64,000 nt of DNA from Gammaproteobacteria bacterium Ga0074134 (GTDB lineage: Bacteria; Pseudomonadota; Gammaproteobacteria; Ga0077554; Ga007554). A program made the translations under genes and the position numbers. Positions 128 through 7,013 of this stretch are shown here, piece after piece; within the stretch, counting starts at the first letter, position 1, and the number at the start of each line of letters is the position of its first letter. The stretch is taken from positions 1 through 64,000 of the forward strand of contig LNEJ01000026.1 of the NCBI GenBank assembly GCA_001464965.1. The letters run 5' to 3'. Below the pieces are notes generated by a model. It had not been told where the DNA came from. It did not search any database and saw nothing but the letters and a program-made list of their open reading frames with translations.

Positions 128-1000
128 GTGAGCCAAATTAGAGACAGTGAATTGGGCGAGTATGATAATCCCGCAGCCCAGTCTTTCATTGACAAAATCA
201 AGGCGAATATCGAACCTTTACCGTCCACACACCAACTATCGAAGTTAAGTAAACTAGCGTCTGAGGCTGCCAACTATATCCATGATGTTGTTTGGGCACT
301 GCTAGTAAATACTCCAAATACTCCAAATACTCTCGATTATTTCAGCTTTATGGGAGATGCTTGTAAAGATCAGGAATTGGGGATCGATGTTTTCACGCTC
401 AACCACGACACTCTGCTAGAGCAGTACTTCAATAATCATAAAATAAAGTTTACAGATGGCTTTGATAGTCCAGTAAATGATGTTCGATATTGGAAGCCTG
501 AGCTCTTTGATGGGGAGATCTCAAACGTGCGTTTATTCAAGCTCCATGGCTCGGTGGATTGGTTTCGACTCGAAGAAGGACTTGGCATTATTCCATTGGG
601 TGGCGACCGTTGGTATAGCAAAAACCGAAACGGTGAAATGCAATATCTGCGAAGTGAACGGCCTGAATTTTTAGCAGGTTCGTTTAATAAAATATTGCAA
701 TATGTAGAGCCGCCTTACGATGACCTACTTTGCTGGTTTCTAAAGGGGCTAAGAGAGACTTCGAGGTTGGTTATTTGCGGATATAGTTTTGGGGATAAGG
801 GCATCAACACAAGACTTCTTGATTGGGTATATTCTGCTGCTGAAAACAAAATAGTACTCATACATCCTGAGCCCGTAAAACTTAGGGAAAGTGCAAGAGG
901 TGCAATTGCAAACAAGGATGATTTATGGGGTAAAAAAATGTCATTGATTAAAAGTTACATCCAGAATGCTAACTGGCCCGAGATCAAAGCCTCATTATAG
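128..1000 (+). CDS. SIR2-like domain protein, probably an N-terminally interrupted gene
   Basis: This encodes a SIR2_2-type protein; many members of that family are NAD-hydrolysing effectors in phage-defence systems. Visible family motifs are TLNHDTLLEQY (about residues 91-101), KLHGSVDWF (about 138-146) and ICGYSFGD (about 216-223). The N-terminal GAGxS-like nucleotide-binding segment is missing. GTG 128 is only the first start codon after the in-frame TGA at 86-88; coding similarity seems to continue upstream through that stop, so the product is probably non-functional or the gene is a pseudogene. Base composition is more AT-rich than in the neighbouring housekeeping genes, which fits horizontal transfer. 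No partner defence gene is visible downstream: the next sequence is a repeat and a broken efflux gene. The domain call is fairly firm, the activity is not. Confidence 0.65.
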   Translation: MSQIRDSELGEYDNPAAQSFIDKIKANIEPLPSTHQLSKLSKLASEAANYIHDVVWALLVNTPNTPNTLDYFSFMGDACKDQELGIDVFTLNHDTLLEQYFNNHKIKFTDGFDSPVNDVRYWKPELFDGEISNVRLFKLHGSVDWFRLEEGLGIIPLGGDRWYSKNRNGEMQYLRSERPEFLAGSFNKILQYVEPPYDDLLCWFLKGLRETSRLVICGYSFGDKGINTRLLDWVYSAAENKIVLIHPEPVKLRESARGAIANKDDLWGKKMSLIKSYIQNANWPEIKASL

Positions 1001-1006
1001 CGAAGA

Positions 1007-1113
1007 GCGTAGGGTGCATCCCACGCACCAAATCAAACAAAGCAAGTAGCACGGACGAAGCGCGAGCGGAATCCGGGGAACACCGTGACTCCATCCACAT
1101 TTCCCCGGATTCC
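1007..1113. repeat. Composite intergenic palindromic repeat
   Basis: The first part (1008-1029) carries GTAGGGTGC followed by CCACGCACC and is repeated with 20 of 22 bases identical at 15135-15156. The second part is a perfect 13-bp inverted repeat, GGAATCCGGGGAA at 1068-1080 and its complement at 1101-1113. Elements of this kind are common in proteobacterial intergenic regions. It sits exactly between the SIR2-like gene and the truncated RND gene, so it may mark the rearrangement junction. Next to it, at 1149-1169, the pentamer GGAAG is repeated four times. Confidence 0.65.
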
Positions 1114-2137
1114 ATTTTATTCCATCCGCGTCTGGCAGGCGTGCGGCCGGAAGGGAAGGGAAGGGAAGGACGCAGGACCGCAGGTCTATCTGGATATCGA
1201 CCAGGAAAAGGCTCAAGCGCTTGGCATTGACATGGCGGATCTTAACAACACTCTTAGCTCTGCCGTTGGTGTTGCGTATGTGAATGACTTTGTGCGTGCC
1301 GGGCGCATTCTCAAAGTACAGATGCAAGCCGATGCCGACCTGCGCAAGACCCCTGATGATCTTTTGAAACTCCCGGTGAGAAATCGCCAGGGCCAAGTGG
1401 TGTTGCTGGGTGAGATTGCCAACCCCAAATGGATTGTGGGACTGCCCAAGCTCGACCGCTATAACGGCAACTCATCAATGAAAATCGCAGGCAACCCTGC
1501 GCCTGGACATTCGACCGGCGAGGCAATGCAGGCCATGGAGGAGATCGCCGCCAAACTGCCGGCGGGGTTTGCCTTCGAATGGTCGGGGACTTCTTTTGAA
1601 GAGCGCCTCGCTGGGGCGCAAACTCCCGTCCTGCTCGCGCTATCCCTGCTTGTGGTGTTCCTGGCACTTGCAGCCCTGTATGAAAGCTGGGCAATTCCGT
1701 TTGCCGTGGTCCTGGTGGTACCGCTGGGCGTTCTCGGTGCGGTGCTGGCCGTTCATCTACGGGGCTTGCCCAATGATGTGTTCTTCAAGGTGGGCCTGGT
1801 TGCCATCATTGGCTTGTCGGCCAAGAACGCCATCCTCATCATCGAATTTGCCCGCAAGCTGCACGATGATGGCATGGAACTGGTCGCCGCCACATTGGAG
1901 GCCTGCCGAATGCGATTAAGGCCCATCCTTATGACCAGTTTCGCATTCATTTTGGGCGTGATGCCGCTCGCCATTTCCACGGGCGCGGGTGCGGCCAGCC
2001 GCCACGCGGTGGGTACGGGCGTGATTGGCGGGATGATTGCTGCAACAGTATTGGCTATATTCCTGGTGCCTGTATTCTTTATCGTGGTGCACAGGCTCTT
2101 CCCTACGCAGTCACGGGAGAAGACGAAACATGATTAA
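1085..2137 (+). pseudogene. RND (HAE1/AcrB-type) efflux permease, C-terminal third only
   Basis: From about base 1170 the product aligns with the last third of AcrB/MexB-type inner-membrane multidrug pumps (about 325 of 1040 residues). It begins at the porter-domain motif around VYLDIDQEKAQALG, followed by YVNDF, RYNG, then the final transmembrane helices with LAALYESW, GLSAKNAIL, RMRLRPILMTS and GVMPLAISTGAG. The first 28 or so codons, including the GTG at 1085, come from the upstream repeat and are not family sequence. About 720 residues, including the proton-relay helix 4, are missing, so this cannot be a working pump. It overlaps the downstream outer-membrane gene by 8 bp, the usual arrangement for an RND operon whose front (periplasmic adaptor plus most of the permease) has been deleted. 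Confidence 0.85.
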
Positions 2138-3696: not shown

Positions 3697-5196
3697 TCAT
3701 ACCTTAAATAGCCCCACGTAATCACCAAGCTGATCGCCAAGATCCAGCACCTTTCCGCTGGTTTGACTAACCTGCTGCATCTTTTCGGCATTATCGCCAG
3801 CTGAATGGTTAATGCTGTGAATATTGCGGTTGATTTCTTCGGCCACGGCGCCCTGTTCTTCTGCGGCACTGGCGATCTGCAGATTCATGTCGCGGATGGC
3901 CGATACCGCATTGGCGATGGCTTGCAAGGCATCGCTTGCCCGGTTGGCCTGCTCCACGCCATGCTGAGCCCTTGCCTTACCCTCTTGCATCGCCACGACA
4001 GCGTTCTTCGAACCTGTTTGGAGCTTTTCTATCATCGACCGGATCTCAGCAGTGGACTGTTGGGTGCGGCTGGCGAGGGTACGCACTTCGTCTGCCACAA
4101 CCGCGAAGCCACGGCCCTGTTCACCTGCGCGTGCCGCCTCAATGGCCGCATTCAAGGCCAGCAGATTAGTTTGCTCGGCGATGCCCTTGATCACATCCAG
4201 CACCATACTGATACCTTGACTGTCCTGCTCAAGTTTTTGAATGACAGCGGCCGATTGCTCTACCTCATTGGCGAGATCGAGTATCGATTGGCGCGCCTGA
4301 TCGATAACAAATTGGCCGGCTTTGGTCTCCTGATCGGCATTAGTTGTAGCCTGGGCAGCCTGTTCCGCACTCCTCGCCACTTCCTGCACTGAGGCAGTCA
4401 TTTCATTTATGGCTGTGGCCGCCTGGCTGGTCTCGGCCAATTGTCTTTGAGCATTTTCATTGGCCTGGGTGGTGGTTTGCTGCATTTTCCGCATGGAAGC
4501 ACCTAGCGTTTGGGAAACAGTCCTGGCGTTTCCGATGGCATTGTGAAGAGCCTGCATGAACTCATTAAAGCCGCGCGCGAACTCGCTGCTGGCATTGGCT
4601 GAACGGAAACTGAGATCGACAATGCCATCCCTGATATTCAAGTGTTGGCCAATTTCACGCAGCTCCTCGGATTGAGCCGCATCCTTGCGAAAGTTAATAG
4701 CAAGCAACACCAGTGCTGCGGTCTCAAAGACAACAAAAGCGGCGTGAATCAGTACTATGCCAATCCCGTTGTGATGCTCGAAGATATGCACACCATGGCC
4801 GCCTTCCTGTAAAAAGCTGAAGGCCAGATGATGAACAGCAATCACTACTGCGGCAGTGACAATGGGTTTCCAATCCACGTAATAGAGCAAAAAAGCCAAC
4901 AGCGCGAATATACTGAAGTGCATCTCGATCATGCCATGGCTTTGATGGATATGCAGCGCCGCAAAAACCATGAAAGTAATGGCATTCGTCAAGCGGGTAG
5001 CCAGATTGCCCGGCAGCATGAAATACATCGCGGTGGAAACGATGGCAGCCGGCAGGCCAATCACAAAGGCCGCAAACCAGGTGTCATGCCATGCGGCCAG
5101 CATCAACGAGACAACCAGCAACAGCCAGTTGATGATGGTCATAAATTTGTCGCCCCGCCGATACAGGGTTTGCAATGAAGAGGTACTGTTGCTCAT
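3697..5196 (-). CDS. Methyl-accepting chemotaxis protein with six-helix membrane sensor
   Basis: Chemoreceptor of about 499 residues. The N-terminal 170 residues form about six transmembrane helices with almost no periplasmic loop, so sensing would be within the membrane. The segment is unusually rich in histidine ([34 protein letters not shown]). A HAMP-like linker and a standard cytoplasmic signalling domain follow; the conserved hairpin tip is [19 protein letters not shown] and the helices after it contain [13 protein letters not shown]. The ATG at 5196 is preferred over an in-frame GTG at 5205 because a GAGTGG-like ribosome site precedes it. No che genes are adjacent, so it is an orphan receptor. 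The ligand is unknown; the histidines suggest haem, metal or a gas, but that is inference. Confidence 0.88.
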
Positions 5197-5435
5197 AATT
5201 TCCACTCGTAATGATATCCAGCCAATGGCACTTGAAAAAGATTAACGTCTTTTCCTTTTCGTGCTCCTATTTAGCGGTATTTGATGATTAAAACTTTAAT
5301 GATCTGCCCGGTTTTTCACAGCAGAATGGGTGGCAAAAAGCTGGGGGAAAGAAACTGCGAGAGGCGGGTAAGGGGGCAGGAGAGTAAAACCGGGCGGGAG
5401 CAGCGCCGCATGGCGCACGCCACTCCCTTGCAGCA

Positions 5436-7013
5436 TCAATGCCTGAAATGCCGCATACCCGTAAACACCATGGCAATGCCATGCTCATTGGCGGCGTCGA
5501 TCACTTCCTGGTCACGCATTGATCCGCCAGGCTGAATGACGGCGGTGATGCCTACCTCGGCGGCGCTGTCCAAGCCGTCGCGGAACGGGAAGAAGGCGTC
5601 GGAGGCCATCACCGAGCCTTTGACCTTTAGTCCTGCGTCGGCGGCCTTGATGGCGGCGATGCGTGCGCTATAGACACGGCTCATCTGGCCTGCACCGATG
5701 CCGATGGTCGTGTTGTCTTTGCAGTACACAATGGCATTGGATTTGACGAACTTGGCGACCTTCCAGGCGAAGAGCAGATCGCGCATTTCCTGTTCAGTGG
5801 GTGCGCGACGGGTGACCCACTGAAGATTGGCAAGATTCACCATCCCCACATCACTCTCCTGCACTAGCAGACCGCCGGTGACACGCTTGTAATCCAAGCC
5901 AGCCGCACGTTCGCCCCCCCATGCACCGGACGCCAGCACCCGCACGTTGCTTTTGGCCGCAAGAATCGGCAGGGCATCATCAAGCACGGCCGGTGCAATA
6001 ATCACCTCAACGAACTGGCGCTCGATAATCGCCTTGGCAGTAGTGGCATCCAACGGCTGGTTGAAGGCGATGATTCCTCCGAAGGCGGAGGTAGGGTCAG
6101 TGGCATAGGCGCGGTCATACGCCTCCAGCAGTGTGGAGCCCAGCGCCACACCGCACGGATTGGCGTGTTTAACGACGACACAGGCCGGGCCTTCAGCGAA
6201 GGATTTCACACACTCCAGCGCGGCATCGGTGTCGGCGATATTGTTGAATGAAAGTTCCTTACCCTGAATCTGACGGGCAGTACTGACGCTGGCCTCGCGC
6301 TGTTCGCGCTCGACGTAAAACGCAGCCTGCTGGTGCGGATTTTCACCATAGCGCAGATCCTGGGCCTTGGCGAATTGCACGCTGTAGGTACGCGGAAAGC
6401 GACCGCGTTCGCCGTTGTCCTGTATCGCGCCAAAATAATTGGCTATCGCGCCATCATAGCGTGCAGTGTGTTCGAAGACTTTGACCGCCAGCGAAAAGCG
6501 CGTTGCCGCGCTGACGGCATCGTTGTTGGCATCCATCTCGGCCAGCACCTTATCGTAGTCGGCGGCGTCCACCACCACAGTGACGGCAGCATGATTCTTG
6601 GCGCTGGAACGCAGCATGGCAGGTCCACCGATGTCGATATTTTCAATCGCGTCTTCCAGCGTGCAGTCCGGCTTGGCAACCGTCTTTTCGAAGGGATAGA
6701 GATTCACCGCCACCAGATCGATAGGGCCGATGCCGTGCTGCGCCATCACGGCATTATCGACCCCGCGCCGCCCCAGCAAGCCGCCATGAATTTTGGGATG
6801 CAAGGTTTTGACGCGCCCATCCATCATCTCGGGAAAGCCGGTGTAATCGGAAACTTCAATTACCGCAATGCCATTATCAGCCAGCAGTCTGGCCGTGCCG
6901 CCGGTGGAGAGAATTTCAACGCCGCGCTCACGCAAGCGGCGGGCAAAGTCGATGATGCCGGTTTTGTCGGATACGCTGATCAACGCGCGTTTGATGGGGG
7001 TGTTGTCTTGCAT
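5436..7013 (-). CDS. purH: Bifunctional AICAR transformylase / IMP cyclohydrolase PurH
   Basis: Catalyses the last two steps of de novo purine synthesis, AICAR to FAICAR and then to IMP, in the cytosol. At 525 residues it has the expected length. The N-terminal MGS-like cyclohydrolase domain shows [21 protein letters not shown] and [18 protein letters not shown]; the C-terminal transformylase domain shows [20 protein letters not shown] and [10 protein letters not shown], and ends in the conserved GMRHFRH. It follows fis and dusB on the same strand, an order common in Pseudomonas and Xanthomonas relatives, but a palindromic repeat separates fis from purH. The ATG start is followed directly by family sequence. 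Confidence 0.97.

What the first reader, a model, noticed from the sequence alone, without database searches (positions are those of the whole stretch)
3697..5196. Chemoreceptor with a histidine-rich intramembrane sensor
Instead of a periplasmic ligand domain this receptor has six helices and about ten histidines within or next to helices 3-6. Pairs such as HH and the [13 protein letters not shown] loop are suited to bind haem, copper or another metal. It stands alone without che genes, next to a broken efflux operon. The sensory input is not one I can name from known ligand-binding domains.
Basis: partly seen in the sequence, partly recalled or inferred. Interest (0 to 1): 0.5.

Follow-up and report, generated by a model that had tools for sequence, protein, structure and literature searches.

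The report
Chemoreceptor with membrane-buried metal-site signature
A bacterial steering receptor carries, inside the membrane, a sensor domain in which one acidic position and four histidines hardly ever change, and in many relatives the gene sits beside a gene for a membrane-tethered partner protein (in one branch of the copper-chaperone family), so it may sense oxygen, redox state or copper through a bound metal.

Summary
In detail: window:3697-5196(-) encodes a 499-aa chemoreceptor whose first ~178 residues are six membrane helices with 12 histidines and no periplasmic domain. Conservation splits them. Over 115 genes H93 and H151 are 115/115, H122 and H123 114/115, and residue 91 is always Glu or Asp; H37, H82, H84, H87 and the [11 protein letters not shown] loop histidines vary. 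So the loop idea fails and the intramembrane idea survives: [E/D]-x-H (TM4), HH (TM5), H (TM6), all in the outer half of the membrane. No Pfam family covers the domain (116 rows scanned). It drives MCP, kinase and GGDEF outputs. New: many relatives pair the gene with a TM-anchored partner whose type follows the tree: SCO1/SenC (12 loci), DUF6436 (thioredoxin-like, Cys-rich; 29 of 80 named loci), or an unnamed ferredoxin-like protein (27 of 29 alphaproteobacterial-type loci); in three loci a cbb3-type oxidase gene follows. The window genome has neither SCO nor DUF6436. Best reading: a metal (probably copper) site sensing O2 or respiratory redox state for taxis, in design like archaeal HtrVIII, which is however thought to bind haem. 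Ligand unproven; haem and copper-ion sensing remain open.

The parts
3697..5196 (-). Chemoreceptor gene (499 aa plus stop; a GTG start at 5205 is also possible)
4663..5178 (-). Six-helix intramembrane sensor domain, residues 7-178
   Evidence: AlphaFold2 helices and pLDDT; no Pfam match, no NCBIfam match (window sequence only), no PDB sequence match of weight
4918..4926 (-). E91-M92-H93, [E/D]-x-H motif at the outer end of TM4
   Evidence: acidic 115/115, His 115/115; 46 of the 115 rows came from a scan whose pattern holds this motif, 69 did not
4828..4833 (-). H122-H123 in TM5
   Evidence: 114/115 each
4744..4746 (-). H151 in TM6
   Evidence: 115/115
4723..4725 (-). E158 in the middle of TM6 (E 92, Q 16 of 115)
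3805..4299 (-). MCP signalling domain (PF00015)
5436..7013 (-). Upstream neighbour, purH-type enzyme; not a partner. The gap between it and the receptor holds no frame that resembles a partner
   Evidence: the equivalent gene of a relative (L023) matches AICARFT/IMPCHase

Best explanation
The N-terminal domain is a six-helix intramembrane sensor that holds a metal, most likely copper, in the outer leaflet of the inner membrane, ligated by some of E91, H93, H122, H123 and H151. [quoted passage not shown] a change in its ligation or oxidation state moves TM6, which leads into the cytoplasmic signalling hairpin and so sets CheA activity (aerotaxis or energy taxis). In many relatives a co-encoded, membrane-anchored periplasmic protein (SCO1/SenC, DUF6436, or an alphaproteobacterial ferredoxin-like protein) loads or redox-tunes the site. 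Shown: invariance of the five positions, the six-helix model, fusion to MCP, kinase and GGDEF outputs, pairing with partner genes. Inferred: that the five positions form one site, that it binds copper, the stimulus, and the mechanism. The window's own receptor has no such partner gene nearby and its genome (80 contigs, listed as 100% complete) has no SCO or DUF6436 match, so here the site would have to be loaded by other means.
For: Invariance of [E/D]91, H93, H122, H123 and H151 across 115 genes: the 41 rows found by similarity and the 29 alphaproteobacterial-type rows, at about 20-30% identity to the window, give the same answer as the 46 pattern-scan rows. In the model all five lie within nine residues of the outer ends of their helices. 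SCO1/SenC-type genes adjoin the receptor gene on the same strand in 12 loci, six of them confirmed by Pfam and six by an HMM made here. DUF6436 is over its cut-off in 8 of 229 genomes, and in 6 of those 8 it lies beside the receptor gene. A COX1-plus-FixO gene directly follows the receptor in three loci. SCO chaperones serve the membrane-buried CuB site of cbb3 oxidase (PMC7558416 passages). Precedents: HtrVIII, a six-TM archaeal aerotaxis receptor (PMC13401364 and PMC9680633 passages); and SCO frames stand beside RegB-type six-TM kinase genes too (4 of the loci fetched).
Against: G000, its genus mates G021 and G169, and in all 8 of 20 receptor genes of the class draw have neither DUF6436 nor SCO beside them; in the named set 50 of 80 have neither. 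The alphaproteobacterial-type partner has no CxxC or other copper motif, only one Cys conserved near its C-terminus. No profile similarity to COX1, RegB or MHYT. HtrVIII, the nearest precedent, is described as probably haem-binding. No coordinates were available, so that the five residues meet in space is inferred. Haem ligation by His would look the same in sequence.
Confidence: 0.4

Rival explanations
1. A b-type haem is ligated by two or more of the four His, and the receptor senses O2, NO or quinone redox state through it, like CyaC of Sinorhizobium or as proposed for HtrVIII.
For: CyaC is a six-TM cyclase with two haem-B whose redox state follows ubiquinone (PMC10463352 passages); four invariant His would suffice; the six TM segments of HtrVIII are called homologous to haem-binding sites of cytochrome c oxidase and likely to bind haem (PMC13401364 passage).
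Against: The CyaC-type anchors resemble fumarate reductase/succinate dehydrogenase cytochrome b enough for BLAST (PMC4821796 passage), whereas no Pfam family at all matches more than 1 of 116 members here at E 0.01. All conserved His lie in the outer half on TM4-TM6, which does not suit two haems (inference). SCO partners point to copper.
Confidence: 0.25
2. The metal ion itself is the stimulus: copper (or zinc, nickel) taxis, with the partner protein presenting periplasmic metal to the receptor.
For: Same site and partner evidence; a TonB-dependent receptor gene follows DUF6436 in L209 and L262.
Against: No copper-resistance family recurs in the neighbour tables, which show the 25 commonest families each of 40 to 86; DUF411 and Cation_efflux occur once each. 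The oxidase link fits a cofactor as well as a stimulus.
Confidence: 0.18
3. The domain binds a lipophilic ligand or quinone, as CqsS and RegB do, and the His/acid set is a polar binding or proton site.
For: Six-TM sensors with lipophilic ligands exist (CqsS; PMC4821796 passages). The model's best fold matches are the membrane domains of ImcA and adenylyl cyclase 8. RegB-type kinases also pair with SCO.
Against: Four His plus an acid invariant across so diverged a family is stricter than ligand pockets usually are (inference); no profile match to RegB; the thioredoxin-fold partners are not explained.
Confidence: 0.1
4. The partner, not a metal, is the sensor: a thioredoxin-fold protein changes thiol/disulfide state and docks on the receptor.
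For: DUF6436 has an invariant pair of Cys, a third invariant Cys and a near-invariant C-terminal C-x-C; SCO-type neighbours carry CxxxC; DCC1-like thiol-disulfide oxidoreductases match 3 of 77 downstream neighbours.
Against: Does not explain the intramembrane His/acid set; many receptors including the window's have no such partner.
Confidence: 0.07

Closest known systems
HtrVIII (Htr8) of Halobacterium salinarum
   Same: MCP with an N-terminal region of six TM segments, said to be homologous to haem-binding sites of cytochrome c oxidase, mediating aerotaxis (PMC13401364 passage; PMC9680633 passage)
   Different: Archaeal; described as probably haem-binding; its sequence could not be obtained and the original paper is not held, so homology is untested
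CyaC of Sinorhizobium meliloti (diheme-B six-TM anchor)
   Same: Six-TM sensor with intramembrane His and a redox role
   Different: Cytochrome b (fumarate reductase) kin with four spaced His; no such Pfam match here; cyclase output
RegB/PrrB kinases with SenC/PrrC
   Same: Six-TM redox sensor encoded beside a SCO protein (operon recalled; SCO frames seen in 4 RegB-type loci)
   Different: GGxxNPF stretch (seen), no ExH/HH/H set; no profile similarity
MHYT domain (PF03707)
   Same: Membrane sensor with conserved His, proposed to bind copper (recalled)
   Different: MHYT repeats; no profile similarity; PF03707 has no match in the window genome
Membrane domains of ImcA, adenylyl cyclase 8 and Rv1625c/Cya
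   Same: Similar six-TM arrangement: Z 10.3 (164 residues, 4.2 A), 7.8 (165, 4.3 A), 6.3 (125, 3.8 A)
   Different: 4, 9 and 14% identity; unrelated designed bundles score Z 6.6-6.7 in the same list

Membership tests
Methyl-accepting chemotaxis proteins | C-terminal MCP signalling domain | tested here: met
   PF00015 161.6 bits against a cut-off of 34.6
MHYT sensors (PF03707) | match to PF03707 | tested here: not met
   no Pfam match; no PF03707 match in G000; hhalign probability 0.5-0.6% against 14 MHYT proteins
RegB/PrrB redox kinases | TM region with the RegB profile | tested here: not met
   hhalign probability 0.1-0.2% against 18 RegB-type TM regions
CyaC/FrdC-type diheme b domains | detectable similarity to fumarate reductase/succinate dehydrogenase cytochrome b | tested here: not met
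   no such Pfam family among the matches of 116 members at E 0.01; no profile comparison was made
CyaC/FrdC-type diheme b domains | two bound b haems | not testable with these tools
   needs purified protein
HtrVIII-type aerotaxis receptors | homology of the six-TM region to HtrVIII | not testable with these tools
   no haloarchaeal sequence was reached; the 22 and 34 plasmid records found are all bacterial by name
Heme-copper oxidase subunit I | profile similarity to COX1 | tested here: not met
   hhalign probability 0.06% and 0.29% against 4 COX1 sequences; one local match is a shared HHL letter run
Class III cyclase / ImcA six-TM fold | same fold | tested here: inconclusive
   best Z 10.3, within the range where helical bundles may agree by arrangement alone
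SCO1/SenC (partner gene in relatives, not in the window) | PF02630 match and CxxxC | tested here: met
   L088 and L162 over the cut-off and 4 members of A7 at E 0.001 or less; CxxxC in all 12 loci, six of which were found by an HMM made here only
DUF6436 (partner gene in relatives, not in the window) | PF20029 match | tested here: met
   12 of 76 upstream and 9 of 77 downstream neighbours; L163 147.2 bits, L099 84.9 bits, cut-off 27.3

The most novel reading that the evidence does not exclude
A widespread, unnamed class of bacterial receptors senses O2 or respiratory state through a CuB-like copper centre built into a six-helix membrane domain and loaded by a dedicated membrane-tethered metallochaperone (SCO, DUF6436 or a ferredoxin-like protein): a respiratory-type metal site reused as a sensor across chemotaxis, kinase and c-di-GMP signalling.
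Probability: 0.3. Interest if true: 0.82.

Novelty: new variant of a known kind. Interest (0 to 1): 0.6.

Why it matters
Many chemoreceptors have no assignable ligand domain. This gives one such family a compact, testable site (five residues) and a biochemical handle (a co-encoded partner). It also gives DUF6436, of unknown function, a likely role: in one even draw of 229 genomes six of its eight over-cut-off genes lie beside this receptor. If the metal is copper, it would link copper delivery and respiration directly to motility.

Tried and rejected
Sequence families. Pfam scans of the window domain, the 17-row A1 and the 116-row A11, NCBIfam for the window only, and PDB sequence searches with the window, A1 and the 87-row A3 gave no family. 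Weak hits of single members or of the window (DUF7144, SLATT_1, Peptidase_M50B, SPC12, DUF6954, MIGRI_fam) were taken as chance, and EmrE at E 0.69 likewise.

Profiles of RegB, MHYT, COX1 and SCO against the domain: no similarity. DUF6436 against SCO: 67.6% over 47 columns, and weak thioredoxin-type hits in the PDB, best 0.00036 to a designed protein and 0.00066 to 2ywi: thioredoxin-like, not proven SCO kin. The alphaproteobacterial-type partner: nothing of weight in the PDB by sequence, and in NCBIfam two single-member matches (0.00083 and 0.034) taken as chance; modelled at pLDDT 83.3, pTM 0.66, as a TM helix plus beta-alpha-beta-beta-alpha-beta; Foldseek best E 0.029; VIA rows run from subtilisin propeptides (Z 7.3) through plant HMA domains (6.4 and less) to copper chaperones Hah1/Atox1 (5.7), all in the range of common arrangement, so no kinship is claimed. 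HMMs from either half of its 24 rows found the held-out rows again, E 2e-22 to 0.0011, with no hit outside loci of that group among 6290 frames.

Foldseek against the PDB with the sensor model: nothing under E 1.

Caveats on counts. The 80 loci (best 80 of 339) were chosen by the pattern IEMHFx[IV]F, so E91 and H93 are built in for the 46 of them that stand in the alignment; H122, H123 and H151 are not. A3 was thinned at 72% identity and short matches were dropped. A11 has 116 rows with one gene twice (L131, L133); one search counts 115. Partner counts use stop-to-stop frames, a 700-base limit and HMMs made here; where flanks are 1.5 kb partners can be missed: L105 and L112 were scored 'none' in the tree but have SCO downstream in L218 and L219. 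In the class draw I counted 20 genes for 21 matches, as the two matches in G206 are pieces of one place. L019's DUF6436 frame is 625 bases from the receptor frame, the other five are within 182 bases or overlap. DUF6436 had 16 genomes at E 0.001 in all; the eight below the cut-off have no receptor hit. Of two annotated alphaproteobacterial plasmids looked at, Methylobacterium (L260) has the partner frame and Paracoccus (L261) does not. Motif screens for outputs: the first missed variant MCPs; the looser one gave 135 MCP, 4 kinase, 1 GGDEF and 17 unclassified of 157 rows, some genes being held twice. A first extraction had minus-strand loci unturned and was discarded. In the neighbour scans, 76 of 79 upstream frames (three very long ones left out) and all 77 downstream frames were scanned, and 62 and 44 of 147 frames of the second set. 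The tree is a quick one with 39 of 104 inner branches open.

Literature: the listings of ten searches showed no description of this domain or of its pairing with DUF6436 or SCO; the one paper holding 'DUF6436' (PMC11687729) was seen in the listing only; the library is open-licence. MtpA-C of Methylobacterium differ by their described domains (PMC10613068 passages). PMC2020435 (passages) names HtrVIII for aerotaxis but also says of HtrVIII that no functional data exist.

Full report
What is there. The ORF window:3697-5196 on the minus strand reads as a 499-residue protein with an MCP signalling domain at residues 300-464. Its first 172 residues match nothing in Pfam, nothing of weight in NCBIfam and no PDB chain by sequence. 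AlphaFold2 on a 17-row alignment gave six helices with mean pLDDT 92.6 and pTM 0.89. Since the signalling part is cytoplasmic and there are six spans, the N-terminus should lie inside (inference). Residues 1-172 hold 12 histidines, the other 327 hold five.

Which histidines matter. I gathered relatives by similarity in 229 genomes of the class (19 hit), by profile in 299 genomes of the phylum (47 hit) and in 240 genomes of a second class (27 hit), and by pattern in named genomes (339 relatives, the best 80 kept). The named genomes are mostly Gammaproteobacteria by title, with Betaproteobacteria, Gemmatimonadaceae, a Solirubrobacter, a Leptospiraceae and an Acidobacteria MAG. Over 115 genes residue 91 is Glu in 87 and Asp in 28; H93 and H151 are 115 of 115; H122 and H123 are 114 of 115; E158 is Glu in 92 and Gln in 16. 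H84 is His in 45 and Gln in 34; H37, H82 and H87 are His in 29 to 36; the loop residues H134, H137, H141 and H142 vary. The 41 rows found by similarity and the 29 alphaproteobacterial-type rows give the same answer as the 46 pattern-scan rows, so the result does not rest on the pattern. The two groups align profile to profile at 99.9% probability.

Where they lie. In the model TM4 spans 90-106, TM5 109-131 and TM6 145-178. E91 and H93 are at the outer end of TM4, H122 and H123 eight to nine residues from the outer end of TM5, and H151 six residues into TM6: roughly 2 to 14 A deep by helix rise, so they could meet in the outer leaflet. This is geometry from helix ends, not measured distances.

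Outputs. By motif, 135 of 157 rows end in an MCP part, 4 in a kinase and 1 in GGDEF, with 17 unclassified. Pfam confirms MCP in L105 and L112, kinase parts in L016 and L019, and GGDEF with PAS in L123. The domain is thus a portable sensor.

Partner genes. Among nearest neighbours of the 80 named loci, DUF6436 heads the upstream table (12 of 76) and, after two TPR models, the downstream one (9 of 77). With an HMM made here, 29 of these 80 loci have DUF6436 within 700 bases of a receptor frame, 1 has SCO and 50 have neither. SCO1/SenC-type proteins with CxxxC adjoin the receptor on the same strand in 12 loci over all sets. In the alphaproteobacterial-type draw 26 of 29 loci have a small TM-anchored protein beside the receptor on the same strand and one on the opposite strand; of the remaining two, L159 has the partner frame but its receptor scored below my threshold, and L156 is the tandem mate of L161, which has it. 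In the even draw of 229 genomes, DUF6436 passes its cut-off in 8; in six of them it lies beside the receptor gene. The other two, G162 and G165, have no receptor hit; in one the next gene is a TonB-dependent receptor. Of the 20 receptor genes in that draw, 6 have DUF6436, 6 SCO and 8 neither. Annotated plasmids agree: SCO beside the MCP in Marinobacter nanhaiticus, DUF6436 beside it in Pseudoalteromonas, and DUF6436 beside a short receptor frame without an MCP match in a Pseudomonas aeruginosa plasmid; a Paracoccus plasmid has no partner frame. On a 107-row tree the partner labels need 17 changes against a shuffled mean of 51.9, as low in 0 of 200 shuffles; this shows that partner type follows the tree, no more. 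In three loci a gene with COX1 and FixO parts, as in a fused CcoN-CcoO, follows the receptor directly; two are titled Gemmatimonas or Gemmatimonadaceae, the third (L085) only 'bacterium', and it groups with a Gemmatimonadaceae row in the tree.

What the partners are. SCO chaperones bind copper and serve both the CuA site and the membrane-buried CuB site of cbb3 oxidase (PMC7558416 passages). DUF6436 proteins begin with a hydrophobic stretch and have an invariant pair of Cys (C-x-C in nearly all rows), a third invariant Cys and a near-invariant C-terminal C-x-C, with weak thioredoxin-type hits. The alphaproteobacterial-type partner is modelled as a TM helix plus a ferredoxin-like fold with one Cys conserved near its end. 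SCO frames also stand beside RegB-type kinase genes, a known six-TM redox sensor, in four loci (L223, L227, L228, L236), which gives the pairing of a six-TM sensor with SCO a precedent.

The window's own case. Nothing like a partner lies in the gaps on either side of the receptor, and G000 has no DUF6436 and no SCO match. The nearest row in the thinned tree, Thioalkalivibrio sulfidiphilus L024, has DUF6436. So the window receptor keeps the site but not the partner. G000 has 7 MCP-domain matches, 12 CheW-domain matches and three COX1 matches, one of them nearly whole, so a working chemotaxis system and a heme-copper oxidase are plausible.

Mechanism. I favour a copper site that senses O2 or respiratory redox state, loaded by the partner where there is one. 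For it: invariance, placement, SCO pairing and oxidase neighbours. Against it: members without a partner, an alphaproteobacterial-type partner without a copper motif, and the haem reading of HtrVIII. On checking the passages I moved a little weight (0.42 to 0.40) from copper to haem, because the HtrVIII review speaks of haem. Copper-ion taxis, a lipophilic ligand and partner-as-sensor stay open with the weights given.

Comparison with the known. HtrVIII is the closest in design (passages only; the original is not held) and untested for kinship. CyaC is a six-TM diheme sensor but of cytochrome b kin. MHYT, RegB and COX1 profiles do not match. The fold resembles ImcA and cyclase membrane domains at a level that may be arrangement only. 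In Cya an outer pocket of the membrane domain is a proposed cation site whose mutation lowers activity (PMC9433096 passages), which shows that such a site can act through a six-TM bundle.

Verdict. Observation confirmed, interpretation partly supported, and extended by the partner genes. The family is unnamed in Pfam; NCBIfam was asked for the window sequence only, and CDD, PANTHER and other libraries were not available.

Noticed in passing
window 128-2137 (+): A SIR2_2-domain ORF (128-1000; best PADLOC match Aga_SIR2, 3.3e-24) directly precedes an AcrB-type pump gene of which only the last third (profile 708-1021) remains.
   Followed up: partly
L164/L209 and L262: DUF6436 is followed by a TonB-dependent receptor gene in a locus without the six-TM receptor (L209) and in one with it (L262).
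   Followed up: partly
L026, L031, L032, L041, L043, L051, L052, L055, directly upstream of the receptor: Judged by eye, a shared membrane protein of about 180-205 aa with a WSRxIWGRxLLALCVVFELxRR-like stretch takes the partner position in these loci; the one tested (L031) has no Pfam match.
   Followed up: no
L061, L062, L065, L067, L082 upstream: Universal stress protein genes precede the receptor; the records are titled uncultured proteobacterium (three), Methylococcaceae and Methylobacter.
   Followed up: no
L028, L029, L030 and L161: Two receptor frames with this six-TM domain stand in tandem; in the first three both follow one DUF6436 gene.
   Followed up: no
L163:5995-6942: A plasmid copy of the domain in Pseudomonas aeruginosa is a 315-aa frame without an MCP match in Pfam, next to DUF6436.
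   Followed up: no
L018 and L130: The only breaks of the HH pair among the 87 rows of A3: H123 is Gln in L018 and H122 is Tyr in L130.
   Followed up: no
L223, L227, L228, L236: SCO-type frames stand within 1.5 kb of RegB-type kinase genes.
   Followed up: no
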